A DNA stretch of 64,000 nucleotides from Astropecten irregularis (lineage: Eukaryota > Echinodermata > Asteroidea > Paxillosida > Astropectinidae), in assembly GCA_963971285.1 (NCBI GenBank), contig OZ020254.1, positions 17,576,932-17,640,931 of the forward strand, read 5' to 3'. The notes under the pieces were generated by a model, which saw only the letters and a list, made by a program, of their open reading frames with translations, was not told the origin of the DNA and searched no databases. Positions 15,038 through 61,416 of this stretch are shown piece by piece; position 1 is the first letter of the stretch, and every line of letters starts with the position of its first letter. The position numbers and the translations under genes were made by a program.

Positions 15038-15039
15038 TC

Positions 15040-21053: not shown

Positions 21054-21548
21054 TTAAAGGGTTTGCTGAGATCCAGCTGAGGTGGCAGGCTGGATGCGAT
21101 TATTAGTAGAAGCTAAGTTGGTACCTTGGGTCTGAATCATAGATGGGCGTTCTCCGGACGATGCAATGAATTTGATGGCGTATAGCTTTGGCACGTAGAC
21201 GCAAACGGCAGTGAGATACGCATTGAGCAGCACGGCCAAGCAGATGGAAGCCACTTTCTGTGACGCATCGCGCGAGGTGAGGTAAACCGGTATGGCCGCC
21301 AGGCATGCCAGAAGGGTAGAGTACACGCTGACACCAATGAACTTAGACTCGTTGTAGTTGTCTGGTACCTTACGAGCCAAGAAGGCGAAGATGCAGCAAG
21401 CCAGGATGATCAGTAGGTTATAGGCGCAGGATACCAGGAAACCAGTGCTCAACTCGCAGTATAATTCAAGATGGTTGTCTCTAGGTATGCTGAACAAGGG
21501 CTTGGGCTCGCAGTGGCCCAGAGCTGATGTCACGATGACGCAGATGAC
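21054..21548 (-). CDS. shared class C GPCR 3' exon (end of TM4, TM5-TM7, C-tail)
   Basis: This exon encodes 164 residues and a stop (TAA). On the minus strand a pyrimidine-rich tract and CTAATACAG precede it, so the exon begins at 21548 with Val in phase 0. That fits every CAG|GT donor of exons B to K. Residues 1-11 complete TM4. Cys31 is the extracellular-loop-2 cysteine expected to pair with TM3. TM5 spans about 36-57, the third intracellular loop holds RKVPDNYNESKF (59-70), TM6 spans about 73-91 and TM7 about 98-120. VPKLY (119-123) is the class C end-of-TM7 motif. The tail of about 40 residues is short for an mGluR. It supplies all predicted G-protein contacts except those of intracellular loops 1 and 2. 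It is the only such exon I can find in the window, 1.1 kb 3' of exon B. Confidence 0.92.
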   Translation of the reverse strand, partial: VICVIVTSALGHCEPKPLFSIPRDNHLELYCELSTGFLVSCAYNLLIILACCIFAFLARKVPDNYNESKFIGVSVYSTLLACLAAIPVYLTSRDASQKVASICLAVLLNAYLTAVCVYVPKLYAIKFIASSGERPSMIQTQGTNLASTNNRIQPATSAGSQQTL

Positions 21549-21961
21549 CTGTATTAGGTACACGGAAAAAGAAGGCAAAATATGACGTTTACTTAAAGTT
21601 TTAGAAATGAAGAATAGAGATACATGTGTGTTTTTTTACCACAGACGTTTATAAACTGCATTGAACACCAGCCAGACTTGTTATACAAAGTCTTCGGTAA
21701 CTATGTAAACGTTGGGTTTTTGTCTTCTTGCTTTTTCTCTAGACGCAGCATTCATAGACTGTTGTCTGGCTTTCAAGTCATCACAAAAACCCAATATCTG
21801 AAAGAAGATTGGAATCTGAGGTTATAATGGTAGAAAATCACGGACACGAGTATGAGGGCCTGCAAATAAACTGTAAAACAGCATAATGTACTTCAGGGAT
21901 ATGATATGATTCCAATTTTAAAAAAAACTCCCCTAAAATCCTACGTAACATTACGTTTGCT

Positions 21962-22062
21962 TCCACATACAGGATGTTTCCTTTTATTTCCTTTTATTTT
22001 CACAAACGACATCCTATTCCACATACAGGATGTTTCCTTTATTTCCGTTATTTCACAAACAA
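21962..22062. repeat. ~53-bp tandem duplication
   Basis: CCACATACAGGATGTTTCCT followed by TTTATTTCC and TTTCACAAAC occurs twice in direct succession with small length differences. It lies in the intron just upstream of the constant exon. Confidence 0.8.
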
Positions 22063-22112
22063 CATGACAAAATCGGCCAACGTCTACAAACTGCAGGATT
22101 AATTATACTTGG

Positions 22113-22226
22113 CGTAGGAGTTGGTTGGCATACGAGTTGGTCGGCGTACGAGTTGGTTGGCGTACGAGTTGGTCGGTGTATGAGTTGACCAAACGGCGTA
22201 CGAGTTGGTCGGCATACGAGTTGACC
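22113..22226. repeat. 16-bp tandem repeat in the last intron
   Basis: Seven imperfect units of GGCGTACGAGTTGGTC, with GGCATACGAGTTG variants. GTAC gives partial dyad symmetry within each unit. On the minus strand the units read as repeated CCAACTCGTACGCC, about 0.6 kb upstream of the shared acceptor. Confidence 0.85.
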
Positions 22227-22652
22227 AGCTTCGATTTATTTAACTGCAATGCATATTCGAGAGAATCCTTAAGTTAAATCGAAAACGTCTTTGGAAAAAC
22301 AAAGACCAAGTAAAATAAAAAGTTTACTTCATTGTAATTATGTGTTTTTTCTTCTCATAATCTGAAATATCTTTAACGTTTAGTTGGGCTGCACGGACAT
22401 AACCTACACACTGTGGACTTAAGAACAAGTATTAAAAAGGACGTCCACATAATGCAGGATCCAAAGACGTTATGTGGACTTGCACACGAAAAGTCCAAAG
22501 GACACATGTTCAATGCGTCTTTACATTTCGCAAACCTCCCTTGAGACGCGAATACATATTTCGCGAGTAATCGATAAACTATACATTGTATGAATGTAAA
22601 ATGCTGCTAGTACCATCACGACACTGGGCATGTGGACAAGATTTCTCTTTAC

Positions 22653-24671
22653 CTGCACAAGGATAAGCACAAACACCATGAAGAGCTGCACGCCGGGTGA
22701 GATAAACCGAGGCCGTCCAGCAGACTTCTTACCAGCTCTGAAGATACGATAAATCCTACTCACTTTGAGTAAGGTTGGAGCGTAGGTCAATGTAAAGCAC
22801 AGATTAACCATGGCCTTGGATAAACAACAGGTGGCAGAAGTGGGATGCGATATCAGCAGAAAGGTAGAGACGAAGGCTAGGAAGAGACCGATGACATTGA
22901 CGGCGCTCAACTCACGGCTGGTTGCTTTGATTACACTGTGCTTACGGTAAACAGTCATACCAAATGCTATCAGCCCTGCCAGAAAAAAACCGACGCATGA
23001 TAGGATTAAAATAGATAGGTGAAGTGTGTCAGTCCAGTCAGTAGCTTTTGGAATGATCGGGATACAAGACAAACGGTCCTCATCAGGCCACTCGGTCTCC
23101 TCGCACTCCATACATTCTGTATTATTGACAACAACAGCATACGCCTCGCATTGGAAACAACCAAAGCAGCATTTTTCTTCCAATGGAGCAAGTTTGTAAC
23201 CTGCTTTGCAGACGTCTACACATGTTGAAGTTGGAACATTGCTTGAACCAGATGGCCAGATGATATCTTGATACATTTCCAGACGCCGCTCTGGAGGAGC
23301 CAATGCATCCCATATGCCCACCGTAACCACTCTGAACTTGCCGTCATCAATCTGTACATTGAGTACTTGGTATTTGCCCTCCATGTCGCCATCTTGGTTG
23401 AACTGAAAACGTCCTCTAACTCCTTCAAAGCTGACTTGCTTGAGATGGGTCAGAAGGTCTTTTCCGTTCAGAGTGCTGGTAGCTGATGAATTTACGAGGG
23501 ATTGTATTGCATAGGCAAATGCGTATACAGCATCGACTACTGGAGCCATGAGGGATCCTGTGTTGTATTGCTCGAGATGGGGCATACCACAACGTTCGTC
23601 AACCCACACGGTGCAATTATTGACTGTCTCCCAGTTGCTCAAGAAGAGCTCAAACCAGGGGTTCTTCTCAATTGCACGTCTCTCCAAGTTTGATAGATAA
23701 TAGAGGAAGCCTTCGGGCTCCGGATTGTGAAGGCCGGTGAACAGGGATCCTTTTGGCGCCCCATCAGAAAGACTCAACGCCCAATAATCACTACCAAACC
23801 ATATGAAATGCCCCTCCTTACCGTTATCTCCTTCTACAGCTTTGACGATCATTCGCGCTAAAGTTGGTTCCGCAAAGACAACGATAACACGAGCCTTTTC
23901 AGCCTCCCACACCAAAGTGGAAACTTCCTCCAGTTCGGAGGTTGTAGGGGACAACTGAATAGGAAGAGACAGAGCTACGCAGATGCCTCTACTCTTAGCT
24001 AGTATCTCTACAGCGTTGGCACCTCGGATTCCATATGTGTCTGCCATGTATAAAATCACTATAAAGTCCCATCCCATGTGGGAGATGATGTCTACTATGG
24101 CCTGAGCTTGTAAACGATCTGGAGGAACAGACCGAAGGAAAAATGGAAATCTTGTTTTATCGCTGAGTTCGTCACTCGTTGCACCGTATGATATCATTGG
24201 TGTCTGGTACAGATCTGCAACTGCTCCAGTGACTATACTTCTCGTGCTTGTTAACGGACCAATGATTCCTGGCACCTTTCTGGACGTTCCATGGGATGAG
24301 TTCGCGCTCTTAGGAGAATGGTCTGGCTGACTTATGCATGTTGAATCTGCCTGAACCACAGACAATGCAGCAAACAAAGCATCGTCCTCAGTTCGGCAAC
24401 TGTCTCGGATTTCAAAACCAAGATTGATGTCGGGCAGCAGGTCGCTCCTGTTGTTTATCTGATCGATGGCAAACACCATGGCCTCAGCAAACTGTACAGA
24501 CGACATCGATGGAACATCTTCACATCTGTCAGACCTTAAAGGAAATATTCCACCGAGTTGGATGTCTCCCTGGCGAATATACACTAACTCAGATGACAGT
24601 CTTGTTGTTTCCACGTCCATAGTCAGACCAAATAGTAATGATATGCACAGCGTTATGTTTACGGACAACAT
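22653..24671 (-). CDS. mGluR-like class C GPCR, variable exon B
   Basis: This is a 673-codon exon; joined to the constant exon it gives an 837-residue receptor. The start at 24671 opens a signal peptide (MLSVNITLCISLLFGLT) before YIRQGDIQLGGIFPL. The VFT keeps the class C backbone-binding positions (LTST, GATSDELSD, PPDRLQ, ADTYGIRG) and has Asp in FGSDYW. The loop cysteine is displaced (STCISQ instead of DHCPKS). The CRD has nine cysteines, then TM1 to mid-TM4. The donor is CAG|GTAAAG. It is the variable exon nearest the constant exon and the most conventional gene model. Read-through would add 43 residues to a stop at 22521. Its 5' end resembles exon C and not the MSGTQ type. Confidence 0.93.
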
Positions 24672-25692: not shown

Positions 25693-27720
25693 CTGTATCA
25701 GGATCAGCAGAAACGCCATGAAGAGCTGCACGCCTGGTGAGATCCAACGAGGCCGTCCAGCAGACTTCTTACCAGCTCTGAAGATACGATAGATCCTACT
25801 CACTTTGAGTAAGGCTGGAGCGTAGGTCAATGTATAGCACAGACTAATCATAGCCTTAGAGAAGCAACAGGTGGCAGAAGTGGGATGTGATATCAGCAGA
25901 AAGGTAGAGACAAATGCTAGGAAGAGACCGATGATATTGACGGCGCTCAGCTCACGGCTGGTTGCTTTGATTACACTGTGGTTACGGTAAACAGTCATAC
26001 CAAATGCTACTAGCCCAGACAGAAGGAAGCCGACGCATGATAGGATCACAATAGACAGGTGTAGTGTGTCAGTCCAGTCAGTAGCTTTTGGAATGATCGG
26101 GATACAAGACAAACGGTCCTCATCAGGCCACTCGGTCTCCTCACAATCCATACATTCTGTATTGTTGACAACAACAGCATACGCCTCGCATTGGAAACAT
26201 CCAAAGCAGCACTTTTCTTCCAATGGAGCAAGTCTATAACCTGCTTGGCAGACATCTACGCATGTTGAAGCTGGAACTTCGGTTGAACCAGATGGCCAGA
26301 TAATATCTTTATACATTTCCAGACGCCGTTCTGGAGGAGCCAATGCATCCCATATGCCCACCGTAACCACTCTGAACTTGCCGTCATCAATTTGTACATT
26401 GAGTATTTGGTATTTGCCCTCCATGTCGCCATCTTGGTTGAACTGGAAACGTCCTCTAACTCCTTCAAAGCTGACTTGCTTGAGATGGGTCAGATGGTCT
26501 TCAGACTCATTCAGAGTGCTGGTATCTGATGAATTCACGAGGGAATGAATTGCATACGCAATTGCGTATACGGCATCGATTACTGGAGCCATGAGGGATC
26601 CTGTGTTATATTGCTCGAGATGAGGCATACCACAACGTTCGTCAACCCACACGGTGCAATTATTGTTTGTCTCCCAGTTGCTCAAGAAGAGCTCAAACCA
26701 GGGGTTCTTGTCAATTGCACGTCTCTCCAAGTTTGATAGATAATCGAAGAATCCTTTCGGCTCCGGATTGTGAAGGCCGGTGAACAGGGATCCTTTTGGT
26801 GCGTCTTGGGAAAGTTTGAAAGCCCAACCGTCACTGCCAAACCATATGAAATGCCCCTCCTTACCTTCATCTCCTTCTACAGCTTTGACGATCATTTCCC
26901 CTAGGGATGAACCCCCGAAGACAACTACCACGCGAGCCTTTTGTGCCTTCCATACCAAGCTGGAAACTTTCTCCAGTTCCGAAGTTGTTGGTTTCTTTTG
27001 CACAGGTACTGAAAGAGCTATGCAGATTCCCCTTCTCTCAGCTAGTTCTTCTAAAGTGTGGGCACCTCGGATCCCGTACGTGCTCGCCGTGTATACAACT
27101 GATATATAATCCCAGCCGATATAGGTGATGACATCTACCATTGCCTGAGCTTGTAAACGATCTGGAGGCACAGACCGAAGGAAAAATTGAAATCTTGTTT
27201 TATCGCTGAGTTCATCACTCGTTGCACTGTATGATACCATTGGTGTCTCGTATAGATCAGCAACTGCTCCAGTGACTATACTTCTCGTGCTTGTTAACGG
27301 ACCAATGATTCCTAACACCTTTCTGGGCCTTCCATGGGATGTGTTCGCGCTCTTAGGACAAGGGTCTGCTTGAGTAACGGATGTTGTATCTGCCTGAACC
27401 ATAGACAGTGCAGCGAACAAGGCATCGTCTTCAGACTTGCAACTGTCTCTGATTTCAAAACCAAGACTGATGTTGGGCAGCAGGTCGCTCCTGTTGTTTA
27501 TCTCTTCGATGGCAAACACCATAGCTTCCACAAGCTGTACAGACCACATCGATGGAACAGCTTCACATCTGTCAGACCTGACAGGGAAAAGCCCACCGAT
27601 TTGGATGTCTCCCTGACGTATGTAGAATATGTGAGACGGCAGTCGGGTAGTTTCCGTTATCATTATCATGCTAAAACTGGCAAAAAGTAATGATACGCAT
27701 TGGATGCACATGAACAACAT
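25693..27720 (-). CDS. mGluR-like class C GPCR, variable exon C
   Basis: This is a 676-codon exon. I prefer the Met at 27720 (MLFMCIQCVSLLFASFSMIM signal peptide), which aligns with exon B, over the in-frame Met ten codons upstream. The VFT keeps the backbone-binding motifs and has Asp in GSDGW, the same residue mGluR1 uses at position 318. The loop cysteine corresponding to the mGluR inter-subunit disulfide is present (ADPCPKS). The CRD has nine cysteines, then TM1 to mid-TM4. The donor is CAG|GTAAAA at 25693/25692, 4.1 kb from the shared acceptor. With B it forms a 5'-end type distinguished by the ETTRL segment after the signal peptide. Confidence 0.92.
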
Positions 27721-31132: not shown

Positions 31133-31180
31133 GATTTCCTTCAATCTGTTTGCTGTAGTATGGTAGAAAATTACTAACGA

Positions 31181-31210
31181 AGAGAAACGATAGAGTGTTT
31201 GCAAACTTAA
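31181..31210 (-). promoter_or_regulatory. conserved upstream box 1, exon D
   Basis: On the minus strand TAAGTTTGCAAACACTCTAT followed by CGTTTCTCT lies about 49 bases before the start codon. The same box at nearly the same distance precedes exons E (35629-35658), G (44481-44510) and K (61464-61493). It may be part of a core promoter or a 5' leader. Shared descent alone could also explain it. Confidence 0.4.
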
Positions 31211-33566: not shown

Positions 33567-35579
33567 CTGTATAAGGATCAGCAGAAACGCCATAAAGAGC
33601 TGCACGCCTGGTGAGATCCAACGAGGCCGTCCAGCAGACTTCTTACCAGCTCTGAAGATACGATAGATCCTACTCACTTTGAGTAAGGTTGGAGCGTAGG
33701 TCAATGTAAAGCACAGATTAACCACAGCCTTAGAGAAACAACAGGTGGCAGAAGTGGGATGCGATATCAGCAGAAATGTAGAGACAAATGCTAGGAAGAG
33801 ACCGATGACATTGACGGCACTCAGCTCACGGCTGGTTGCTTTGATTACACTGCGGTTACGGTAAACAGTCATACCAAATGCTATCAGCCCAGACAGAATA
33901 AAGCCGACGCATGATAGGATTACAATTGACAGGTGTAGTGCGTCAGTCCAGTCAGTACCTTTTGGAATGATCGGGATACACGACAAACGGTCCTCATCAG
34001 ACCACTCGGTCTCCCCACAATCCATACATTCTGTATTATTGACAACAACAGCATACGCCTCACATTGGAAACAACCAAAGCAGCATTTTTCTTCCAATGG
34101 AGCAAGTCTGTAACCTGCTTGGCAGACGTCTACGCATGTTGAAGCTGGAACTTCAGTCGAACCAGATGGCCAGATAATATCTTGATCCATTTCCAGACGC
34201 CGTTCTGGAGGAGCCAATGCATCCCATATGCCCACCGTAACCACTCTGAACTTGCCGTCATCAATCTGTACATTGAGTATTTGGTATTTGCCCTCCATGT
34301 CGCCATCTTGGTTGAACTGAAAACGTCCTCTAACACCTTCAAAGCTGACTTGCTTGAGATGGGTCAGAAGGTCTTTTCCATTCAGAGTGCTGGTAGCTGA
34401 TGAATTCACGAGGGAATGTATTGCATAGGCAAATGCATATACGGCATCGACTACTGGAGCCATGAGGGATCCTGTGTTGTATTGCTCGAGATGAGGCATA
34501 CCACAACGTTCGTCAACCCACACGGTGCAATTATTGACTGTCTCCCAGTTGCTCAAGAAGAGCTCAAACCAGGGGTTCTTCTCAATTGCACGTCTCTCCA
34601 AGTTTGATAGATAATCAAAGAATCCTTTGGGCTCCGGATTGTGAAGGCCGGTGAACAGGGATCCTTTTGGTGCCCCGTCGGAAAGCCCTGACGCCCAAAA
34701 CTCACTACCAAACCAAATGAAATGTCCCTCCTTACCGCCATCTCCTTCTACAGCTTTGACTATCATTTCCCCTAGGGTTGAACCCCCGAAGACAACTACC
34801 ACGCGAGCCTTTTGTACCTTCCATACCAAGGTGGAAACTTTCTCAAGTTCGGACGTTGCAGGTTTTTTTTTAACAGGCAGAGACAGAGCTACGCATATTC
34901 CCCTTCTCTCAGCTAGTACCTCTAAAGCGTGGGCACCTCGGATCCCATAGGTGCTCGCCGTGTATATGACAGATATATAATCCCAGCCCATGTAGGTGAT
35001 GATATCAACCATGGCCTCAGCTTGTAAACGATCTGGAGGCACAGACCGAAGGAAAAATGGAAATCTTGTTTTATCGCTGAGTTCATCACTCGTTGCACCG
35101 TATGATACCATTGGTGTCTCGTACAGATCGGCAACAGCTCCAATGACTATACTTCTCGTGCTACTTATCGGACCAATGATTCCTAGCACCTTTCTGGGCG
35201 TTCCATGGGTTGAGTTCACATGTTGAGGACAATGGTCTTCTTCAGTAACGGATGTTGTATCTGCCTGAAGCATAGACAGTGCAGAGAACAAGGCATCGTC
35301 CTCAGTTCGGCAACTGTCTCGTATTTCAAAACCAAGACTGATGTCGGGCAGAAGGTCGGTTCTGTTGTTTACCTCTTCGATGGCAAACACCATGGCCTCA
35401 GCAAGCTGTAAGTTCCCCATCGAAGGAACAGCTTCACATCTGTAGGACCTCAATGGAAAGATGCCACCGAGTTGGATGTCTCCCTGTCGGATGTATAATA
35501 CCCGAGCTGCCGGTAAAGCAACCACTAGTGCCGCACACAGGAGTAATGACACACCCAAGACCATCTGAGTGCCTGACAT
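33567..35579 (-). CDS. mGluR-like class C GPCR, variable exon E
   Basis: This is a 671-codon exon; start at 35579 (MSGTQMVLGVSLLLCAALVV). The VFT motifs are conserved: ISST, GATSDELSD, PPDRLQ, STYGIRG, and Glu in FGSEFW. The loop cysteine is present (DHCPQHV). In the CRD, CGETEWSDED replaces the usual CEETEWPDED, the only member with this change. TM1 to mid-TM4 follow, then CAG|GTAAAC at 33567/33566. The last intron would be 12.0 kb. The donor type groups it with D. Upstream lie conserved box 1, a SINE, and box 2 on the far side of the SINE, followed by a truncated relic of another exon. Confidence 0.92.
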
Positions 35580-35730
35580 GATTTCTTTCAATCTGTTTGC
35601 TGTATTATGGTAGAAAATGAATCATGAAGAGAAACGATAGAGTGTTTGCAAACTTAATCAAGTTTTTCTATCCGGAAAGTGTCGACCTTTTGGTAATCTC
35701 TTTAATGCCTAGAAGGTTGAAGATCTGCTA

Positions 35731-36066
35731 TGGGGGCATAGGTGGCAAGTGTGTTAGGCACTTGCCTCTCACCAATGTGGCCCGGGTTCGAATCCGGCCT
35801 GGGCCATATGTGAGTAGAGTTGTGCGTTGGTTCTCTCCTATGCAACGAGGGTTTTTGTCGTGGTTCTCCGGTTTCCTCCCTCCACAAAAATCAAACCCTT
35901 TCCATCTCAGGCTGTACTCCGTGATCATATATGTGTTGATGTGGCTGGCAGCCAAGGGCGCCCATGAAAGCCTGCTACTCGATCACGTTGGAGTCTCATC
36001 CTTCGCAATTCAGCACCCCAGCTGCGAGTAAGGATGATTAGCCTCCCAAATTATTATTGTTATTAT
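35731..36066 (+). mobile_element. tRNA-derived SINE, copy 1
   Basis: A tRNA-like head carries a good B box (GGTTCGAATCC at about 35788). A conserved body (TTGGTTCTCTCCTATGCAAC ... GGTTTCCTCCCTCCACAAAA) and a tail of TTATTATTGTTATTAT follow. Exons D and K have the same upstream sequence without the element. The copy at 44582-44922 sits at the equivalent site, so insertion preceded that duplication. I could not define a clean target duplication. Confidence 0.8.
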
Positions 36067-36496
36067 ATCCTATGGGAGATTTCACTTTCCTTTATCCTTC
36101 CAGAGATATTGATGTTTGTCCGACATGGATATTCACTTGGAAAGGATTCTCCTGACTATGACTGCGATGCAGACAGTGCGGAATGCATATGCATTAAGTT
36201 ACACGAGCAAACGAAACATCTCGTTATGAAGTATCACCTTGATAAAGGCTACTGCTATGGACACATCATCCGAACCGAGGCCAGGATGCGATTGGACAAT
36301 CAATTGTTTCGCACTGCTGCAAATTCCGTAATGTGTGAAATATGACATGCCAATTCTCCAGAAATGTCATCTACGGCAACTATACAAGCCGGATGTGAAT
36401 GTATTATGCTACAGAAACATCCAACAGAAAAATAGTGTGCAATTTCCTCATCTGATTGGTTGGTATCACCAATCACATCAATTAAACATTAATTAG

Positions 36497-36732
36497 CAGG
36501 TTACACCTGTTGTTCACCTCTTCGATGGCATACACCATATGCTTCTGGTAACTGTAGAGCCCACATCGTTGGAAGTTTTTCACATCTGCGTGCCCTTATA
36601 GGAAAGAGCCCGCCGAGTTTGATGTCCCCATTCCGAGTGTACGACAGTTGAGCCATTGGCGGTATGACATTCGTTTCCATGCTCATATCGAAAAGTAACA
36701 CTACAAACAGTGATTATGTGTACGGGCATCAT
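36497..36732 (-). pseudogene. truncated 5' relic of a variable exon (upstream of E)
   Basis: It reads like the first ~75 codons of exons H and I (NVIPPMAQLSYTRNGDIKLG ... WALQLPEA) and then stops matching right after the NNR-S-LL segment. It has a one-base insertion in the signal-peptide region and a two-base insertion at the MVYAIEE segment, so it cannot encode a start of the receptor. The rest of the exon is missing. Confidence 0.85.
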
Positions 36733-38025: not shown

Positions 38026-40038
38026 CTGAATAAGGAGCAGCATAAACACCATGAAGAGCTGCACGCCTGGTGAGATCCAACGAGGCCGTCCAGCAGACTT
38101 TGTACCAGCTCTGAAGATACGATAGATCCTACTCACTTTGAGTAAGGTTGGTGCGTAGGTCAATGTAAAGCACAGACTAACCATAGCCTTGGATAAACAA
38201 CAGGTGGCAGAAGTGGGATGCGATGTCAGCAGAAAGGTAGAGACAAAGGCTAGGAAGAGACCGATGACATTGACGGCGCTCAGCTCACGGCTGGTTGCTT
38301 TGATTACACTGTGGTTACGGTATACAGTCATACCAAATGCTATCAGCCCAGACAGAATAAAGCCGACGCATGATAGGATTACAATAGACAGGTGTAGTGT
38401 GTCAGTCCAGTCAGTAACTTTTGGAATGATCGGGATACAAGACAAACGGTCCTCATCAGGCCACTCGGTCTCCTCGCACTCCAAACATTCTTTATTATTG
38501 ATAACAACAGCATACGCCTCACATTGGAAACAACCAAAGCAGCATTTTTCTTCCAACGGAGCAAGTCTGTAACCTGCTTGGCAGACGTCTACGCATGTTG
38601 AAGCTGGGACTTCGGTCGAACCAGATGGCCAGATAATATCTTGATACATTTCCAGACGCCGTTCTGGAGGAGCTAATGCATCCCATATACCAACCGTTAC
38701 CACTCTGAACTTCCCGTCATCAATCTGTACATTGAGTATTTGGTATTTGCCCTCCATGTCGCCATCTTGGTTGAACTGAAAACGTCCTCTAACTCCTTCA
38801 AAGCTGACTTGCTTGAGATGGGTCAGAAGGTCTTTTCCATTCAGAGTGCTGATATCTGATGAATTCATGAGGGAATGTATTGCGTACGCAAATGCGTATA
38901 CGGCTTCGACTACTGGAGCCATTGGGCGTTCTGTCCTGTATTGGTCAAGATGGGGCATACCACAACGTTCGTCAACCCACACGGTGCAATTATTGACTGT
39001 CTCCCAATTGCTCAAGAAGAGCTCAAACCAGGGGTTCTTCTCAATTGCACGTCTCTCCAAGTTTGATAAATAGTCAAAGAATCCTTGGGGCTCCGGATTG
39101 TGAAGGCCGGTGAACAGGGATCCTTTTTTTGCTCCTTTGGAAAGACTAAACGCCCAAGCCTCACTACCAATCCAAATGAAATGTCCCTCCTTACCGCCAT
39201 CTCTTTCTACAGCTTTGACGACCATTCGCCCTATGTTTCCTCCCCCGAAGACAACAACCACGCGAGCCTTTCGAGCTTTCCAAACCAAGGTGGAAACTTG
39301 CTCCAGTTCGGAGGTTGTAAGTGAGTGAATAGGCAGAGACAGAGCTACGCAGATGCCCCTTCTCTCAGCTAGTACCTCTAAAGCGTGGGCACCTCGGATC
39401 CCATAGGTGTTCGCTGTGTATATGACAGATATATAGTTCCAGCCCATGTAGGCGATGACATCTACCATAGCCTCAGCTTGTAAACGATCTGGAGGAACAG
39501 ACCGAAGGAAAAATGGAAATCTTGTTTTATCGCTGAGTTCGTCACTCGTTGCACCGTATGATATCATTGGTGTCTCGTAAAGATCGGCAACTACTCCAGT
39601 GACTATACTTCTCGTGCTCGCAAACGGACCAATGATTCCTAGCACCTTTCTGGACGTATCGCGGGATGAGTTCGCGCTCTTCATAGGAGAATGGTCTGCT
39701 TGACTTATGCATTTTGTATCTGACTGAATCATAGACAGTGCAGCGAACAAGGCATCGTCCTCAGTTTGGCAACTGTCTCGGATTTCAAAACCAAGATTGA
39801 TGTCTGGCAGCAGGTCGCTCCTGTTGTTTATCTGTTCGATGGCAAACACCATGGCCTCAGCAAGTTGTAAGTTCCCCATCGATGGAACTCTTTCACACCT
39901 GCCGGACTTCAAAGGAAAGATCCCACCGAGTTGGATGTCTCCCTTTAGGGTGTATAATACCCGAGCTGCCGGTAAAGCAACCACTATTGCCGCACACAGG
40001 AGTAATGACACACCCAAGATCATCTGAGTGCCTGACAT
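38026..40038 (-). CDS. mGluR-like class C GPCR, variable exon F
   Basis: This is a 671-codon exon; start at 40038 (MSGTQMILGVSLLLCAAIVV). The VFT motifs are conserved: FAST, GATSDELSD, PPDRLQ, NTYGIRG, and Glu in IGSEAW. The DHCPKS cysteine is replaced by Ser, but a cysteine appears nine residues earlier (TKCISQ), as in B. A DQYRTERPMAPV segment is shared only with J. The CRD has nine cysteines (with NNKECLEC), then TM1 to mid-TM4. The donor is CAG|GTAAAA at 38026/38025, 16.5 kb from the acceptor. The 3' flank is nearly identical to those of H and J. Its 5' flank diverges from D, E, G and K about 45 bases upstream of the start and lacks conserved box 1. Confidence 0.92.
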
Positions 40039-40391
40039 GATTTTGGTCAATCTGTTTGCAGTAGTATGGGTAGAAAACACGATCTCGTGATGAAGAATCT
40101 CCTTGATAGGGGCACCTGCTATGGACACATGCATCATCCGAAGAATACGATCAGTGCGCAGTCAATAGCCTACAGTCGTACTGCTAAAATACATAATGTA
40201 TAAATGATCACAAGCCAAGGATAAATATCTGTTCAAGAATTGTCAATTCTTCTGAAATGCCCTCTACGGCGTTTATACAAACCGGATGCATGGATTGTGT
40301 GATGCTACAGCAAGATCCGACAGAGAATCGTCCGTGTGTGCAATTTTCACATCTGGTTGGTTGGCATCGCCATTCATACGAATTAAAAATT

Positions 40392-40552
40392 GAGCAGTAG
40401 GTCACTCCTGTTGTTCACCTCTTCGATGGCATACATGTACATCATGGCTTCTGGAAACTGTAGAACCCGCATCAATGAAAGTTGCTCACATCTGCGTGTC
40501 TTTATATGAAAAAGCCCGAAGAGTTTGATGTCCCCATTCCGAGGGTATGGTA
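40392..40552 (-). pseudogene. truncated 5' relic of a variable exon (upstream of F)
   Basis: It matches the YTRNGDIKLGG to EEVNNRSDLL part of the H/I type but has lost the signal-peptide segment: the match jumps from the NGDIK region straight to flanking sequence (GGTACCACAAGTACAC). The same deletion is present in the relic at 56396-56553, so those two share ancestry. Confidence 0.8.
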
Positions 40553-44922: not shown

Positions 44923-45354
44923 CCTATGGGAGATTTCACTTTCCTTTATCCTTCCAGAGATATTGATGTTTGTCCGACATGGATATTCACTTGGAAAGGA
45001 TTCTCCTGACTATGACTGCGATGCAGACAGTGCGGAATGCATATGCATTAAGTTACACGAGCAAACGAAACATCTCGTTATGAAGTATCACCTTGATAAA
45101 GGCTACTGCTATGGACACATCATCCGAACCGAGGCCAGGATGCGATTGGACAATCAATTGTTTCGCATTGCTGCAAATTCCTTAATGTGTGAAATATGAC
45201 ATGCCAATTCTCCAGAAATGTCATCTACGGCAACTATACAAGCCGGATGTGAATGTATTATGCTACAGAAACATCCAACAGAAAAATAGTCCGTGTGTGC
45301 AATTTCCTCATCTGATTGGTTGGTATCACCAATCACATCAATTAAACATTTATT

Positions 45355-45591
45355 AGCAGGTTACTCCTGTTGTTCACCTCTTCGATGGCATACACCATGG
45401 CTTCTGGTAACTGTAGAGCCCACATCGTTGGAAGTTTCTCACATATGCGTGCCCTTATAGGAAAGAGCCCGCCGAGTTTGATGTCCCCATTCCGAGTGTA
45501 CGACAGTTGAGCCATTGGCGGTATGACATTCGTTTCCATGCTCATTTCGAAAAGTAACACTACAAACAGTAATTATGTGTACGGGCATCAT
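45355..45591 (-). pseudogene. truncated 5' relic of a variable exon (upstream of G)
   Basis: It is nearly the same as the relic at 36497-36732 but keeps the PEAMVYAIEEVNNRS segment in frame. The one-base insertion in the signal-peptide region is present, and all sequence beyond about codon 75 is missing. Confidence 0.85.
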
Positions 45592-46871: not shown

Positions 46872-48839
46872 CTGAATAAGGAGCAGCAGAAACACCATGA
46901 AGAGCTGCACGCCTGGTGAGATCCAACGAGGCCGTCCAGCAGACTTTGTACCAGCTCTGAAGATACGATAGATCCTACTCACTTTGAGTAAGGTTGGCGC
47001 GTAGGTCAATGTAAAGCACAGACTAACCATAGCCTTGGATAAACAACAGGTGGCAGAAGTGGGATGCGATGTCAGCAGAAACGTAGAGACAAAAGCTAGG
47101 AAGAGACCAATGACATTGACGGCGCTCAGCTCACGGCTGGTTGCTTTGATTACACTGTGGTTACGGTATACAGTCATACCAAATGCTATCAGCCCAGACA
47201 GAATAAAGCCGACGCATGATAGGATTACAATAGACAGGTGTAGTGTGTCAGTCCAGTCAGTAACTTTTGGAATGATCGGGATACAAGACAAACGGTCCTC
47301 ATCAGGCCACTCGGTCTCCTCGCACTCCATACATTCTGTATTATTGACAACAACAGCATACGCCTCACATTGGAAACAACCAAAGCAGCATTTTTCTTCC
47401 AATGGAGCAAGTCTGTAACCGGCTTGGCAGACGTCTACGCATGTTGAAGCTGGGACTTCGGTTGAACCAGATGGCCAGATAATATCTTGATACATTTCCA
47501 GACGCCGCTCTGGAGGAGCTAATGCATCCCATATACCCATCGTAACCACTCTGAACTTGCCGTCATCTCCTTGTACATTGAGTATTTGGTATTTTCCCTC
47601 CATGTCGCCATCTTGGTTGAACTGAAAACGTCCTCTAACTCCTTCAAAGCTGACTTGCTTGAGATGGGTCAGAAGGTCTTTTCCATTCAGAGTGCTGATA
47701 TCTGATGAATTCACAAGGGAATGTATTGCATAGGCAAATGCGTATACGGCATCAACTACTGGAGCCATGACGGATCCTGTGTTGTATTGCTCGAGATGAG
47801 GCATACCACAACGTTCGTCAACCCACACGGTGCAATTATTGACTGTCTCCCAGTTGCTCAAGAAGAGCTCAAACCAGGGGTTCTTCTCAATTGCACGTCT
47901 CTCCAAGTTTGATAAATAGTCAAAGAATCCTTGGGGCTCCGGATTGTGAAGGCCGGTGAATAGGGATCCTTTTGGTGCTCCTTTGGAAAGACCAAAAGCC
48001 CAACCCTCGCTACCAAACCAAATGAAATGTCCCTCCTTACCGCCATCTCCTTCTACAGCTTTGACGACCATTCGCCCTATGTTTCCTCCCCCGAAGACAA
48101 CTACCACGCGAGCCTTTTGAGCATTCCACACCAAGGTGGAAACTTTCTCCAGTTCAGAGGTTGAAAGCGGCCAATGAACAGGCAGAGACAGAGCTACGCA
48201 GATGCCCCTACTCTCAGCTAGTACCTCTAAAGCGTGGGCACCTCGGATCCCATAAGTATCTGCTTGGTAAATGACAGATATATAATCCCATCCCATGTAG
48301 GTAATGACATCCACCATTGCCTGAGCTTGTAAACGATCTGGAGGAACAGACCGAAGGAAAAATGGAAATCTTGTTTCATCGCTGAGTTCGTCACTCGTTG
48401 CACCGTATGCTATCATTGGTGTCTCGTAAAGGTCGGCGACTGCTCCAACGATGGTACTCACAGTGCTTGTTTGTGGACCAATGATTCCAAGCACCTTTTT
48501 GGGTTGGTCATGGTTGGTCGCCTGGACCAGAGATAATGCAGACCAAAGTGAAATGTCATCGTTATAGCAACCGGCTCTTAATTCAAAGCCGAGACGGATG
48601 TTGGGCAGCAGGTCACTCCTGTTATTCACCTCTTCGATGGCATACACCATGGCTTCTGGTAACTGTAGAGCCCACATCGAGGGAAGTTCACATCTGCGTG
48701 CACTTATAGGAAAGAGCCCGCCGAGTTTGATGTCCCCATTCCGAGTGTACGACAGTTGAGCCATTCGCGGAATGACATTCATTTCCATGCTCATATCGAA
48801 AAGTAACACTACAAACAGTGATATGTGTACGGACAACAT
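46872..48839 (-). CDS. mGluR-like class C GPCR, variable exon H
   Basis: This is a 656-codon exon, the shortest intact member. The start at 48839 opens MLSVHISLFVVLLFDMSM; two in-frame Met codons further upstream are less likely. The 5' type (MAQLSYTRNGDIKLGG) is shared with I and with the four relics, while the 3' end and donor (CAG|GTAAAA at 46872/46871) match F and J. About 15 residues are missing from the lobe-1 loop (VQATNHDQPKKVLG), taking away the dimer cysteine and its surroundings. The other VFT motifs (QTST, GATSDELSD, PPDRLQ, ADTYGIRG, GSEGW), the nine-cysteine CRD and TM1 to mid-TM4 are intact. Confidence 0.92.
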
Positions 48840-54030: not shown

Positions 54031-56038
54031 CTGAATAAGGAGCAGCAGAAACACCATGAAGAGCTGCACGCCTGGTGAGATCCAACGAGGCCGTCCAGCA
54101 GACTTTGTACCAGCTCTGAAGATACGATAGATCCTACTCACTTTGAGTAAGGTTGGAGCGTAGGTCAATGTAAAGCACAGACTAACCATAGCCTTGGATA
54201 AACAACAGGTGGCAGAAGTGGGATGCGATGTCAGCAGAAAGGTAGAGACAAAGGCTAGGAAGAGACCGATGACATTGACGGCGCTCAGCTCACGGCTGGT
54301 TGCTTTGATTACACTGTGGTTACGGTATACAGTCATACCAAATGCTATCAGCCCAGACAGAATAAAGCCGACGCATGATAGGATTACAATAGACAGGTGT
54401 AGTGTGTCAGTCCAGTCAGTAACTTTTGGAATGATCGGGATACAAGACAAACGGTCCTCATCAGGCCACTCGGTCTCCTCGCACTCCATACATTCTGTAT
54501 TATTGACAACAACAGCATACGCCTCACATTGGAAACAACCAAAGCAGCATTTTTCTTCCAACGGAGCAAGTCTGTAACCTGCTTGGCAGACGTCTACGCA
54601 TGTTGAAGCTGGGACTTCGGTCGAACCAGATGGCCAGATAATATCTTGATACATTTCCAGACGCCGTTCTGGAGGAGCTAATGCATCCCATTTACCAACC
54701 GTTACCACTCTGAACTTCCCGTCATCAATCTGTACATTGAGTATTTGGTATTTGCCCTCCATGTCGCCATCTTGGTTGAACTGAAAACGTCCTCTAACTC
54801 CTTCAAAGCTGACTTGCTTGAGACGGGTCAGAAGGTCTTTTCCATTCAGAGTGCTGATATCTGATGAATTCATGAGGGAATGTATTGCATACGCAAATGC
54901 GTATACGGCATCGACTACTGGAGCCATTGGGCGTTCTGTCCTGTATTGGTCAAGATGGGGCATACCACAACGTTCGTCAACCCACACGGTGCAATTATTG
55001 ACTGTCTCCCAATTGCTCAAGAAGAGCTCAAACCAGGGGTTCTTCTCAATTGCACGTCTCTCCAAGTTTGATAAATAGTCAAAGAATCCTTGGGGCTCCG
55101 GATTGTGAAGGCCGGTGAACAGGGATCCTTTTGGTGTCTTGTGGGAAAGACCAAAAGCCCAATACTCACTACCAAACCAAATGAAATGCCCCTTACCGCC
55201 ATCTCCTTCTACAGCTTTGACGACCATTCGCCCTGTGTATGATCCCCCGAAGACAACTACCACGCGAGCCTTTTGAGCTTTCCACACCAAGGTGGAAACT
55301 TGCTCTAGTTCGGAGATTGTAAGTGGCGAATGAATAGGCAGAGACAGAGCTACGCAGATGCCCCTTTAAAGCTAGCACCTCTAAAGCGTGGGCACCTCGG
55401 ATCCCATAGGTGCTCGCTGTGTATATGACAGATATATAGTTCCAGCCCATGTAGGTGATGACATCTACCATGGCCTGAGCTTGTAAACGATCTGGAGGCA
55501 CAGACCGAAGGAAAAATTGAAATCTTGTTTTATCGCTGAGTTCGTCACTCGTTGCACCGTATGATATCATTGGTGTTTCGTAAAGATCGGCAACTGCTCC
55601 AGTGACTATACTTCTTGTGCTTGTAAACGGACCAATGATTCCCCGCACCTTTCTGGACGTATCGTGGGATGAGTTCACGCTCTTAGGACAATGGTCTACT
55701 TGAGTAACGGATGTTGTATCTGCCTGAACCATAGACAGTGCAGCGAACAAGGCGTTGTCCTCGTTCCAGCAACTGTCTCGTATTTCAAAACCAAGATTGA
55801 TGTTGGGCAGCAGGTCGCTCCTGTTATTAATCTGTTCGATAGCAAACACCATGGCCTCAGCAAGCTGTAAATACCGCATCGATGGAACTCTTTCACACCT
55901 GCCGGACTTCAAAGGAAAGATCCCACCGAGTTGGATGTCTCACTTTCGGGTGTATAATACCCGAGCTGCCGGTAAAGCAACCACTATTGCTGCACAAAGG
56001 AGTAGTGATGCACCCAAGATCATCTGAGTGCCTGACAT
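54031..56038 (-). pseudogene. mGluR-like variable exon J, broken
   Basis: Start and signal peptide are intact (56038, MSGTQMILGASLLLCAAIVV). A G-to-T change then turns the Gly codon of the RKGDIQLGG segment into TGA (55942-55940), and a two-base deletion near 55365 shifts the frame in the EVLAERRGIC segment. Everything 3' of that, including lobe 2, the nine-cysteine CRD, TM1 to mid-TM4 and the donor CAG|GTAAAA, is open and well conserved. Sequence and 3' flank are closest to F and H. It keeps the DHCPKS cysteine. It could still serve as a donor in gene conversion. Assembly error at one site is possible, but two independent lesions make that less likely. Confidence 0.9.
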
Positions 56039-56395
56039 GATTTTGCTCAATCTGTCTGCAGTAGTATGGGTAGAAAACACGATCTCGTGATGAAGAATCT
56101 CCTTGATAAGGGCACCTGCTATGGACACATGCATCATCCGAAGAATACGATCAGTGTACAGTCAATAGCCTACAGTCGTACTGCTAAAATACATAATGTA
56201 TAAATGATCACAAGCCGAGGATAAATATCTGTTCAAGAATTGTCAATTCTTCTGAAATGCCCTCTACGGCGTTTATACAAACCGGATGGATTGTGTGATG
56301 CTTCAGCAAGATCCGACAGAGAACCGTCCGTGTGTGTAGTTTGTAATTTTCCAATATAATTGGTTGGTATCGCCATTAATACGAATTACAAATTG

Positions 56396-56553
56396 AACAG
56401 CCGATCACTCCTGTTGTTCACCTCTTCGATGAGATACACCCTGGCTTCTGGTAACTGTAGAGCCCACATCAATGGAAGTTTCTCACATTGTGCGTGTCCT
56501 TATATGAAAAAGCCCGCCGAGTTTGATGTCCCCATTCCGAGGGTATGGTACCA
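56396..56553 (-). pseudogene. truncated 5' relic of a variable exon (upstream of J)
   Basis: It shows the same deletion structure as the relic at 40392-40552 (no signal peptide, ends after the NNRSDLL region), with additional substitutions that break the MVYAIEE segment. Confidence 0.8.
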
Positions 56554-56924
56554 CAAGTACACTCTACAATCTGCTGTAAGACTATGCTCATGTCTCTCAC
56601 TCACGTCGAAGCATCTGACTTTGAAACATGCTGTAGGCATGTTTATAATTACGCAGGAACTCGGTTTGTAAGCTGAATATAAGAAGGACTTGCAGCTTTT
56701 AATGTTCTGATCAACTAAGCCCAAACCATCCATCCCTGGCTTTATTAATATGATTACATGGACTATCAATCGAAGACCTTGTCTGAGTTTCATTCAGGAG
56801 AAGGTAACTGCAATGTGTTTATTTTCCTTTCCATTTGGGAGTTAGATAACAAAGGAAGAGGAAATTTTCTCAAGGGTAAACGTAATATCAAATTCTATAG
56901 AAACATTTTATGTTTACACTTAAT

Positions 56925-57992: not shown

Positions 57993-58818
57993 CCTTGCAC
58001 AGGCCTACGGGGGACTGCCAAGATGGCATTTACAATGTGAAGACTCTTCACAATTACATTTCAGTCAAAGGATGTGTGTAAGAAAGCGAATTTACCAACC
58101 ATCTTGGGATTTGTAAATGTACGAATTTGGAGCTTTAAGGCATGCTTTGAACCAATGCTCGTTAATATTAGATTGGTATGCCGTATGAGGAATTGTAGCT
58201 TGAAGAATCCAGCAGAAAAAGTTCATATTGTGTAAATGAGATTTGAAAGTTTGTGTGGTGGGCGCACAATGTAGGACTAAGTGTTTGTGCTTGGTGACGC
58301 CATGTTTTAAACTCTCCTGAGGCTGACTGTGGCTCTAAGAGGAGCCGCTAACTCAATCACTAAATTTTCTGGTGTGTTTTAATCCCACGGTATCACTCTA
58401 TCAGTTGCCCGAGTTTCCACGTAAATTCACCTTCAATCTGGAGCTATTATTCTTGTAGTGAAACGGGTTTCTGATGTGTAGTGGGTGTCACCTGGAATCT
58501 CAAGGTTTAGCTTATTCAACATTCTTATAAATGTATTGTTCTTAATTGTCATGTATTGTTCCGTCTGAAAATCCGAAAGTAAAATTCCTGAATAATCTTA
58601 CCCGAAATTGTCAAAATTCATAGTTGGCACGTGTGATCCTCCGATCATTGCTTAGCTAACTTAAATTATCCTTATTATTGTTCAATTCGTGAATATCTTT
58701 AGCAGATGATGCTACCCGAGCACAACACTTCGACTCTTTTCATTGATAATTATATCGGTATCACATATGCACGAACAAAATAAAATTGACAAATTTCCCT
58801 TCTGTTCTACACATGCAG

Positions 58819-58931
58819 TTGGTGTTAACCTCGTTGTGTAACTTTCTCTAACATCACTGGACGACACCGACTATCTGGTAGTAATTGGTGTGCTAGTCAA
58901 GGAACGCCTGCACCATTTTGTGTTTAATGAG
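58819..58931 (+). other. 113-nt exon-like block, copy 3 (interrupted)
   Basis: Third copy with the same borders (CATGCAG| and GAG|GTAAGATC). It has TAA in the frame that is open in the other two, which argues that the block is not under coding constraint here. Confidence 0.35.
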
Positions 58932-59400
58932 GTAAGATCAATTTGTTTTCCGTCATTTTAAAGTCACATTTTTACAGTGTTTATGAAGGCAAATACTGTT
59001 ATCAATTTATTTAAGTTCCCTACTATGTTCGTGTCGATTGGTTTATAGAGTTTAGAGAGTGATTTTGAAGACTTTTTGGTGATATTTGAGTCAAATTGAA
59101 TGCACGTGTATTACGCATACTGTTTAACACGTCTATGTTAATATATAATTCACTATAGATATCCTAACGCACTGGTGATGATGATGATGCCATCAAGCGA
59201 TAGACCTGTCACACTCACATGTCTCAGTAATGCATTTCCTCGTACAGATTACTCATAGTCACTTGTTAATAACTGAATGAATGTAAGCTTTACAAAGCTG
59301 GACATTTTTGTTGCCAAATTGATAAAATTGGCCGTAAATAACTCATTTCTTTTTATTATTTTGTTACTCTTTAATTGGTTTAATAAAGAGAGGTTATTAC

Positions 59401-61416
59401 CTGTATCAGGATCAGTAGAAACGCCATAAAGAGCTGCACGCCGGGTGAGATCCAACGAGGCCGTCCAGCAGACTTCTTACCAGCTCTGAAGATACGATAG
59501 ATCCTACTCACTTTGAGTAAGGTTGGAGCGTAGGTCAGTGTAAAGCACAGACTAACTATAGCCTTGGATAAACAACAGGTGGCAGAAGTGGGATGAGATG
59601 TCAGCAGAAAGGTAGAGACAAAGGCTAAGAAGAGACCGATGACATTGACGGCGCTCAGCTCACGGCTGGTTGCTTTGATTACACTGTGCTTACGGTAAAC
59701 AGTCATACCAAATGCCATCAGCCCTGATAGAATTAAGCCGACGCATGATAGGATTACAATTGACAGGTGTAGTGTGTCAGTCCAGTCAGTAGCTTTTGGA
59801 ATGATCGGGATGCAAGACAAACGGTCCTCATCAGGCCACTCAGTCTCCTCACAATCCATACATTGTGTATTATTGACAACAACAGCGTACGGGTCACATT
59901 GGAAACAACCAAAGCAGCATTTTTCTTCCAATGGAGCAAGTCTGTAACCTGCTCGGCAGACGTCTACACATGTTGAAGTTGGAACATTGCTTGAACCAGA
60001 TGGCCAGATAATATCTTGATACATTTCCAGACGCCGTTCTGTAGGAGCTAATGCATCCCATATACCCACAGTAACCACTCTGAACTTTCCGTCATCTCCT
60101 TGTACATTGAGTATTTGGTATTTGCCCTCCATGTCGCCATCTTGGTTGAACTGAAAACGTCCTCTAACTCCTTCAAAGCTGACTTGCTTGAGATGGGTCA
60201 GAAGGACGTTTCCATTCAGAGTACTGATATCTGATGAATTCACAAGGGAATGTATTGCATAAGCAAATGCGTATACGGCATCGACTACTGGAGCCATGAG
60301 GGATCCTGTGTTGTATTGCTTGAGATGAGGCATACCACAATGTTCGTCAACCCACACGGTGCAATTATTGACTGTTTCCCAGTTGCTCAAGAAGAGCTCA
60401 AACCAGGGGTTCTTCTCAATTGCACGTCTCTCCAAGTTTGATAAATAGTCAAAGAATCCTTGGGGCTCCGGATTGTGAAGGCCGGTGAAGAGGGATCCTT
60501 TTGGTGTCTTGTGGGAAAGACCAAAAGCCCAAGCCTCGCTCCCAAACCAAATGAAATGTCCCTTCTTACCGCCATCTCCTTCTACAGCTTTGACGACCTT
60601 TCGTCCTGTGGATGATCCCCCGAAAACAACTACCACGCGAGCTTTTTGAGCCTTCCACACCAAAGTGGAAACTTGCTCCAGTTCGGAGGTTGTAAGTGGC
60701 GAGTGAACAGGCAGAGACAGAGCTACGCAGATGCCCTTACTTTCAGCTAGTACCTCTAAAGCGTGGGCACCTCGGATTCCATAAGTATCTGCTTGGTAAA
60801 TGACAGATATGTAATCCCATCCCATGTAAGAGATGACATCTACCATGGCCTGAGCTTGTAAACGATCTGGAGGAACAGACCGAAGGGAAAATGGAAATCT
60901 TCTTTTATCGCTGAGTTCATCACTCGTTGCACCGTATGATATCATTGGTGTCTCGTACAGATTGGCAACTGCTCCAGTGACTATACATTCCGTACTTGTG
61001 AACGGACCAATGATTCCCTGCACCTTTCTGAGTGAATCGTGGGATGTGTTCTGGTGCTGAGAATATTGGTCTAGTTGGCTATAAACGGATGTTAGATCTC
61101 CCTGAACCATAGACAGTGCAGAGAACAGGGCTTTATCCTCATTCCAGCAACTGTCTCGGATTTCAAAACCAAGACTGATGTTGGGCAGCAGGTCGCTCCT
61201 GTTGTTTATCTGTTCGATGGCAAACACCATGGCCTCAGCAAGCTGTAAATACCGCATCGATGGAACTCTTTCACACCTGCCGGACCTCAAAGGAAAGATG
61301 CCACCGAGTTGGATGTCTCCCTGTCGGGTGTACTCTAGCTGAGCTGCCGGTAAAGCAACCACTACTGCCGCACATAGGAGTAAAGACACACCCAAGATCA
61401 TCTGAGTGCCTGACAT
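59401..61416 (-). CDS. mGluR-like class C GPCR, variable exon K (farthest upstream)
   Basis: This is a 672-codon exon; start at 61416 (MSGTQMILGVSLLLCAAVVV). The dimer-loop cysteine is missing (YSQLDQYSQHQNTSHDSLRK), but an extra cysteine occurs in the next helix (TSTECIVTG), unique in the set. A DEHCGMPH segment replaces DERCGMPH, and the CRD has QCDPYAVV for QCEAYAVV; the nine cysteines are kept. VFT motifs GATSDELSD, PPDRLQ and ADTYGIRG are intact, with Glu in FGSEAW. The donor is CAG|GTAATA at 59401/59400, so its last intron would be 37.9 kb. Conserved boxes 1 and 2 lie upstream without a SINE, and no exon relic follows. It is probably the 5' end of the array. Confidence 0.92.

What the first reader, a model, noticed from the sequence alone, without database searches (positions are those of the whole stretch)
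21054..61416. Ten class C GPCR sensor exons share one TM5-TM7 exon: a protocadherin-like receptor locus
Seen: ten same-strand exons of 656-676 codons (one broken) each carry a start codon, signal peptide, VFT, nine-cysteine domain and TM1 to mid-TM4, and each ends at a phase-0 CAG|GTAA donor. A single downstream exon begins in phase 0 after a good acceptor and supplies the end of TM4, TM5-TM7 and tail. I looked for another TM5-TM7 exon in every interval and found none. Known: clustered protocadherins use alternative first exons spliced to constant exons. Inferred: each exon is an alternative first exon with its own promoter, giving up to nine receptors with different ectodomains and one signalling half. 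I know of no GPCR locus described with this design.
Basis: partly seen in the sequence, partly recalled or inferred. Interest (0 to 1): 0.96.

Follow-up and report, generated by a model that had tools for sequence, protein, structure and literature searches.

The report
Sea-star receptor array sharing one exon
In what appears to be a sea-star genome, ten side-by-side copies of the sensing part of a glutamate-receptor-like protein share a single copy of the part that completes it, which suggests that several sensors are made by splicing different fronts onto one common back, a layout known from protocadherins and insect taste receptors.

Summary
Ten minus-strand exons (nine open, 656-676 codons; one broken) end at phase-0 CAG|GTAA donors; one downstream exon supplies 7tm_3 positions 131-251, the four N-exons scanned supply 2-129. 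A profile of 87 C-halves finds no other such exon in the array. Purifying selection (mean dN 0.094, dS 0.258) and nine surviving frames argue that the exons work without a C-exon of their own. The genome (unnamed; by protein matches a sea star) holds a second array, 8:1, on a separate branch, while 12 related N-exons pair by position with 12 C-exons. Divergence concentrates in the ligand-binding domain; the membrane half is homogenised. Best explanation: a variable-first-exon/constant-exon class C GPCR locus, working like protocadherins, UGT1 or, most closely, Drosophila Gr39a. Splicing and promoters are inferred; no transcript was available. New variant of a known kind.

The parts
21054..21548 (-). 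Constant exon (164 codons + stop): end of TM4, TM5-TM7, C-terminal tail; acceptor ...CCTAATACAG|GTC, phase 0
22653..24671 (-). N-exon A, 673 codons, donor CAG|GTAAAG
25693..27720 (-). N-exon B, 676 codons, donor CAG|GTAAAA
29120..31132 (-). N-exon C, 671 codons, donor CAG|GTAAAC
33567..35579 (-). N-exon D, 671 codons, donor CAG|GTAAAC
38026..40038 (-). N-exon E, 671 codons, donor CAG|GTAAAA
42420..44432 (-). N-exon F, 671 codons, donor CAG|GTAATA
46872..48839 (-). N-exon G, 656 codons, donor CAG|GTAAAA
50730..52736 (-). N-exon H, 669 codons, donor CAG|GTAATA
54031..56038 (-). N-exon I, broken (nonsense + frameshift), donor still CAG|GTAAAA
59401..61416 (-). N-exon J, 672 codons, donor CAG|GTAATA; 37,852 nt from the constant exon
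2070..4070 (-). N0: neighbouring N-exon of the same subfamily, downstream of the constant exon; its C-exon (C0) lies outside the window at C18:17571153-17571644
36484..36658 (-). Decayed 5'-exon fragment (G/H type) upstream of D
40388..40552 (-). Decayed 5'-exon fragment upstream of E
45344..45517 (-). Decayed 5'-exon fragment (G/H type) upstream of F
56388..56550 (-). Decayed 5'-exon fragment upstream of I

Best explanation
This is a class C (mGluR-like) GPCR locus with a variable/constant organisation. Each N-exon is an alternative first coding exon with start codon, apparent signal peptide, ligand-binding domain, cysteine-rich domain and TM1 to mid-TM4; its phase-0 donor is spliced in cis, over up to 37.9 kb and past the other N-exons, to one shared exon that completes TM4 and supplies TM5-TM7 and tail. 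Up to nine receptors with different ligand-binding lobes and a common signalling half result, probably amino-acid-type chemoreceptors. New variants arise by duplicating and recombining N-exons without duplicating the C-exon; recombination homogenises the membrane half while the lobes diverge. SHOWN: exon anatomy, phases, absence of other C-exons, purifying selection, mosaic divergence, a second array, and 12 N-exons with 12 C-exons elsewhere. INFERRED: the splicing itself, where transcription starts, and the sensory role. The confidence given is for splicing of several N-exons to the shared C-exon, whichever promoter they use.
For: Donors 10 of 10 phase 0, and N- and C-exon carry complementary parts of 7tm_3. 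Annotated Patiria proteins P0001 and P0002 run through the same joint colinearly...IQ-V... (by eye; their exons were not seen). Only one C-exon in the array. Mean dN 0.094 and dS 0.258 over the 36 pairs of nine intact exons. In a neutral-decay simulation the chance that all nine frames lack stops is 1.9e-22, or 1.4e-16 counting one of each close pair, zero results being set to 0.00025. Seven of the nine intervals between N-exons share homologous stretches (for example E>D against G>F, 97% over 2,453 columns) and hold no C-exon, so those units duplicated without it. Second array B, C18:5088924-5124449: 8 N-exons (7 open), 8 of 8 phase-0 donors, one C-exon, on a separate branch. The other 12 large N-exons pair with 12 C-exons by coordinates and strand.
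Against: No transcript. Array A donors lack the consensus G at +5 (10 of 10). AATAAA/ATTAAA hexamers occur within 600 nt after 9 of 10 donors, so truncated transcripts are possible, while 1.5 kb after the constant-exon stop has only two ATTAAA. Acceptor-like sites 17-45 nt before the ATG in 5 of 10 exons. Among 24 annotated echinoderm proteins no pair has an identical C-half with a different N-half. Recent copies in array B (B2-B6) have dN/dS 0.40-0.80 on few changes. Two intervals (C>B, B>A) share no homology with the others at the threshold used.
Confidence: 0.82

Rival explanations
1. Only exon A, next to the constant exon, makes a full receptor; the upstream exons are orphaned half-genes on the way to decay.
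For: Exon I is broken and four 5' fragments are decayed; no transcript shows long-range splicing.
Against: Eight upstream exons keep open frames, start codons and donors at pairwise dS 0.10-0.37 with dN/dS 0.25-0.46; neutral survival is improbable; array B likewise keeps 7 of 8 frames and 8 of 8 donors.
Confidence: 0.07
2. Upstream exons make truncated proteins (ligand-binding domain plus TM1-4) by intronic polyadenylation or read-through, as decoys or dimer partners.
For: AATAAA/ATTAAA within 600 nt downstream of 9 of 10 donors; short open tails after the donor.
Against: Read-through tails differ in length and sequence between exon types while donor GTAA is kept in 10 of 10; an unfinished TM4 would be an odd end; array B keeps GTGAGT or GTAAGT in 8 of 8.
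Confidence: 0.06
3. A variant of the best explanation: one distal promoter and a common untranslated leader exon, with mutually exclusive splicing into each N-exon, rather than one promoter per exon.
For: Coarse scan finds acceptor-like sites 17-45 nt before the ATG in exons C, D, F, I, J; no 5' ends are known.
Against: No such site at that distance in A, B, E, G, H; upstream sequences fall into several unlike classes.
Confidence: 0.15
4. Assembly artefact: C-exons between N-exons were collapsed, or N-exons falsely duplicated from haplotypes.
For: B4 and B6 differ by dS 0.006 and some intervals are 97% identical.
Against: The window holds no N; the nine exons differ by dS 0.10-0.37, too much for alleles; the pattern recurs in two places while 12 related N-exons have C-exons.
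Confidence: 0.03

Closest known systems
Drosophila Gr39a (also Gr23a, Gr28b, Or69a); PMC2204066 abstract and introduction read, PMC3011837 passages read
   Same: Large alternative exons, each with most of a 7TM chemoreceptor and a donor; shared short 3' exons give the last TM and tail; exon gain, loss and pseudogenisation under purifying selection.
   Different: Insect chemoreceptors are not GPCRs and lack a large extracellular ligand domain (recalled); no such family matched here. Four large exons (a fifth in other flies) and three shared exons versus ten and one; the split falls after TM6, not in TM4.
Clustered protocadherins alpha and gamma (PMC1885805, passages read)
   Same: Tandem large variable first exons joined to constant exons; gene conversion between neighbouring variable exons.
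   Different: Cadherins, not class C receptors; constant exons encode only cytoplasmic sequence (recalled); promoter choice is unknown here.
UGT1 and GCNT2 clusters (PMC1885805 passages read; PMC3325998 start of abstract in a listing)
   Same: Tandem variable first exons and a shared set of downstream exons.
   Different: Enzymes; gene conversion reported not to be predominant there.
Echinoderm mGluR-like receptors, e.g. Patiria miniata P0001/P0002 (60-63% to N-exon C)
   Same: Same domains, colinear through the N/C joint.
   Different: Annotated as separate proteins; no identical C-half with a different N-half among 24 proteins compared.

Membership tests
Class C GPCR, mGluR-like | ANF-receptor ligand-binding domain and nine-cysteine domain above Pfam cut-off | tested here: met
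   4 of 4 N-exons scanned (of 9 intact): ANF_receptor 227-238 bits against 25.4, NCD3G 39.1-40.8 against 38.9
Class C GPCR, mGluR-like | Complete 7tm_3 domain | tested here: met
   Complementary parts 2-129 and 131-251 in separate exons; whole only if spliced
Class C GPCR, mGluR-like | Alpha-amino-acid contact residues (positions recalled from mGluR structures) | tested here: met
   S, T, D, Y equivalents invariant in 9 of 9 intact exons and N0; D or E at the fifth (alignment to mGluR7)
True glutamate receptor | Basic residues contacting the distal carboxylate (R78- and K407-type; recalled) | tested here: not met
   Replaced by L/F and by L/P/V/F in 10 of 10 (nine intact exons and N0), so glutamate is unlikely as ligand
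Class C GPCR, mGluR-like | G-protein coupling | not testable with these tools
   needs expression
Variable-first-exon / constant-exon cluster (protocadherin, UGT1, GCNT2, Gr39a type) | Tandem same-strand variable exons with same-phase donors and one downstream constant exon set | tested here: met
   10:1 here, 8:1 in array B
Variable-first-exon / constant-exon cluster (protocadherin, UGT1, GCNT2, Gr39a type) | Variable exons lack their own acceptor | tested here: inconclusive
   coarse scan: acceptor-like sites close to the ATG in 5 of 10
Variable-first-exon / constant-exon cluster (protocadherin, UGT1, GCNT2, Gr39a type) | Own promoter per variable exon | not tested
   no 5'-end data
Variable-first-exon / constant-exon cluster (protocadherin, UGT1, GCNT2, Gr39a type) | Transcripts joining different variable exons to the constant exon | not testable with these tools
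   no RNA data for this animal
Clustered protocadherin | Cadherin domains | tested here: not met
   no cadherin match in the Pfam scan of four N-exons and the constant exon
Insect Gr/Or chemoreceptor | Insect chemoreceptor Pfam families | tested here: not met
   only class C families above cut-off; Peripla_BP_6 and COX14 below cut-off

The most novel reading that the evidence does not exclude
Sea stars evolved, at least twice in one genome, a germline variable/constant system for GPCRs in which one promoter among many is chosen per sensory cell, so that each cell shows one ligand-binding lobe on a common signalling half, while recombination among N-exons keeps making new lobes.
Probability: 0.2. 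Interest if true: 0.9.

Novelty: new variant of a known kind. Interest (0 to 1): 0.68.

Why it matters
It would show that the variable-first-exon solution, known for adhesion molecules, detoxifying enzymes and insect chemoreceptors, also arose in a GPCR class, twice in the same genome next to ordinary two-exon relatives. That gives a natural experiment in how such loci form: duplicate the sensor exon, keep one signalling exon. It fixes the signalling half, so ligand specificity can be compared on a constant background, and it warns that gene counts of echinoderm chemoreceptors may miss such receptors or call them half genes.

Tried and rejected
Another C-exon: tblastn at E up to 10 and a C-half profile with filters off gave only noise. 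A decayed array: not borne out by dN/dS and simulation, except for exon I and B7; the simulation takes half the smallest pairwise dS of each copy as its neutral branch, and gene conversion and shared branches make it approximate. The design in other echinoderms through annotated proteins: of 24 proteins taken, no pair has an identical C-half. The nearest cases within a species are Amphiura P0189/P0191 (C-half 93%, N-half 82%) and Acanthaster P0013/P0195 (C-half 90% over 103 residues, N-half 47%); the database is clustered at 90%, so close isoforms may be hidden. Two unnamed ENA ORFs, P0121 and P0125, have near-identical TM1-4 with different ectodomains (by eye), possibly a similar array elsewhere; not followed. 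A conserved promoter motif: upstream sequences align only within classes, not pursued. No structure was predicted: a joined protein would not count as the window's own, and it would add little. The C14 gene (60% to N-exon C) was fetched after the tree and is not in it.
Full report
WHAT IS THERE. The window is C18:17576932-17640931 of a 475.7 Mb genome in 168 contigs. The best protein matches to N-exon C are sea-star proteins (Patiria miniata, 63% and 60%, 120 of 292 matches listed), so I take the animal to be a sea star; no tool names it. All ten large exons are on the minus strand; nine are open over 656-676 codons from the ATG to a phase-0 donor, and exon I carries an early nonsense codon and a frameshift. 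Nine of nine intact exons have an in-frame stop 14-42 codons upstream of the ATG. The donors are CAG|GTAA in 10 of 10. The constant exon, 21548-21054 with stop, follows a CTAATACAG acceptor in phase 0. Four of the nine intact N-exons were scanned with Pfam: each has ANF_receptor, NCD3G and 7tm_3 positions 2-129; the constant exon has 7tm_3 131-251. The best solved relatives of N-exon C are metabotropic glutamate receptors 7, 4 and 8.

ONE C-EXON ONLY. tblastn of the constant exon against 164 kb around the array finds it, C0 (82% identical, C18:17571153-17571644) and a third at 17516812-17517219. A profile built from 87 C-halves of database proteins, run without filters on six frames of four regions, finds the same three in this region, one in array B, three in the trio at 7.48 Mb and one at 18.74 Mb, all above 169 bits, and nothing else better than E 1.4. 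So there is neither an intact nor a recognisably decayed C-exon between the N-exons. Of the nine intervals between N-exons, seven (J>I to D>C) share homologous stretches with one another (for example E>D against G>F, 97% over 2,453 columns); C>B and B>A do not at E 1e-5 and 80 bases. For those seven, the duplicated unit held an N-exon and its flanks but no C-exon.

CENSUS OF THE GENOME. A genome-wide search with N-exon C (66 of 129 candidates scored, so counts are lower bounds; 67 matches) gives 30 N-exons that match over at least 540 of 670 residues, counting exon I by its two pieces; the other matches are fragments or more distant genes, some with 7tm_3 unbroken in one frame. The search with the constant exon (44 of 44 scored) gives 26 matches. 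By position and strand I pair 12 N-exons with 12 C-exons, one each: N0, the 17.53 Mb gene, the 18.73 Mb gene, the trio at 7.48 Mb, 7.76 Mb (all C18), C14, C16, C21, C29:12.80 Mb and C12:20.49 Mb. Donors were looked at in N0, the trio, the 18.73 Mb gene and C14 (phase 0 in 6 of 6), an acceptor only for C0; the other pairings rest on coordinates. The remaining 18 N-exons lie in two arrays: ten here on one C-exon, and eight at C18:5095677-5124449 on one C-exon at 5089448-5088924. The other 12 of the 26 matches lie outside both arrays. In array B, 7 of 8 frames are open (B7 has a frame break), donors are phase 0 in 8 of 8 (seven CAG|GTGAGT, one CAA|GTAAGT), and introns would be 6.2-33.0 kb.

TWO BRANCHES. 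A FastTree tree of 45 N-halves (22 from this genome; exons I and B7, C14 and some other single genes not included) puts the nine intact array-A exons in one clade (support 0.999), N0 next, then Patiria P0001 and P0002; the seven open array-B exons form another clade (1.000) beside Patiria P0122 and Acanthaster P0123. The trio with three C-exons is a third branch. N-exon C is 36-41% identical to array-B exons. The simplest reading is that N-exons multiplied onto one C-exon separately in A and B; exchange within arrays could hide older events.

SELECTION. Among 36 pairs of the nine intact exons mean dN is 0.094 and mean dS 0.258 (dS 0.103-0.368; pairwise ratios 0.25-0.46). In a simulation of neutral decay over half the smallest pairwise dS of each exon, the chance of no stop is at most 0.031 for any exon, 1.9e-22 for all nine and 1.4e-16 with one member per close pair, zero results being set to 0.00025. 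This is rough, because branches are shared and conversion occurs. In array B the distant pairs have dN/dS 0.30-0.43; the recent copies B2-B6 have 0.40-0.80 on few changes, which does not show constraint by itself.

WHERE THE EXONS DIFFER. With borders set by motifs in exon C, mean dN is 0.207 in lobe I, 0.111 in lobe II, 0.047 at the end of the ligand domain, 0.028 in the cysteine domain and 0.039 in TM1-4; dS is 0.468, 0.333, 0.153, 0.170, 0.161. Fourfold-degenerate divergence declines along the exon, though not evenly (r = -0.18 over 363 sites, permutation p = 0.0005). Since silent sites show it, the 3' part seems homogenised by recombination or conversion, not only constrained. Exons E and G illustrate it: 56% identity in the first 150 columns, 98-99% in about the last 500 of the exon, and 93-100% through the following interval. 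N0 has mean dS 1.571 to the array in lobe I but 0.162 in the cysteine domain and 0.320 in TM1-4. Decayed 5'-exon fragments nearest to G/H lie upstream of D, E, F and I, which I read as footprints of such exchanges. PMC1885805 (passages) reports prominent gene conversion among protocadherin variable exons and not in UGT1.

LIGAND. Following the alignment to mGluR7, the residues that in mGluRs hold the amino-acid backbone (positions recalled, not from a call) are kept in the nine intact exons and N0, with D or E at one of them, while both basic residues for the side-chain carboxylate are replaced by L/F and L/P/V/F. I infer amino-acid-like ligands other than glutamate. A sensory role is inferred from the family: in Acanthaster two mGluRs are among the differentially expressed receptors, one of them male-biased in sensory tentacles (PMC6267866, passages).

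HOW IT MOST LIKELY WORKS. Alternative first exons, each spliced over the others to the constant exon. Shown: anatomy, uniqueness of the C-exon, selection, recurrence. Inferred: splicing and transcription starts. Results against: no +5 G in array A donors; polyadenylation-like hexamers within 600 nt of 9 of 10 donors, and only ATTAAA at +37 and +1361 in 1.5 kb after the constant exon; acceptor-like sites before five ATGs; no identical C-half with a different N-half among 24 annotated echinoderm proteins.

WHAT IS KNOWN. Drosophila Gr39a has four large exons, each with six TM domains, alternatively spliced to three small shared exons, with donors on the large exons and the first acceptor at the shared block (PMC2204066, abstract and introduction); long N-terminal exons joined to shared C-termini occur in other fly Or/Gr genes (PMC3011837, passages). 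Protocadherin, UGT1 and GCNT2 clusters have the same logic (PMC1885805, passages). The listings of ten answered paper searches (several capped, for example 12 of 82 and 15 of 56) showed no GPCR locus of this design; the library lacks most subscription papers. So it works like Gr39a and protocadherins, is a class C GPCR by domain, and is a new variant of a known kind.

Noticed in passing
G000:C18:5088924-5124449: A second array of eight N-exons (one broken) sharing one C-exon, 36-41% identical to N-exon C of the window.
   Followed up: yes
window 2070-4070: N0, an eleventh N-exon whose C-exon lies about 5.3 kb beyond the window start; its cysteine and membrane parts are much closer to the array at silent sites than its ligand lobe.
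   Followed up: partly
window 36484-36658, 40388-40552, 45344-45517, 56388-56550: Decayed 5'-exon fragments upstream of exons D, E, F and I, nearest to G/H-type ends: probable relics of exchanged exon fronts.
   Followed up: partly
window upstream of D (about 35700-35880) and the matching stretch upstream of F: A stretch with a TTCGAACCCGGG sequence, perhaps a tRNA-derived repeat, seen before D and F but not before the other aligned exons.
   Followed up: no
window about 6649-8196 and 14589-15346: Tandem repeat blocks in the 17 kb between the constant exon and N0, one of them a 15-base unit read as KAKQS.
   Followed up: no
P0121 and P0125 (unnamed ENA contigs of 20.6 and 23.6 kb): Two ORFs related to array B with nearly identical TM1-4 and different ectodomains, both running past the joint: possibly a similar array in another echinoderm.
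   Followed up: no
P0004 (Acanthaster planci, 1041 aa): The annotated protein carries a second, nearly complete 7TM region after its first; looks like two neighbouring genes merged by annotation (by eye).
   Followed up: no
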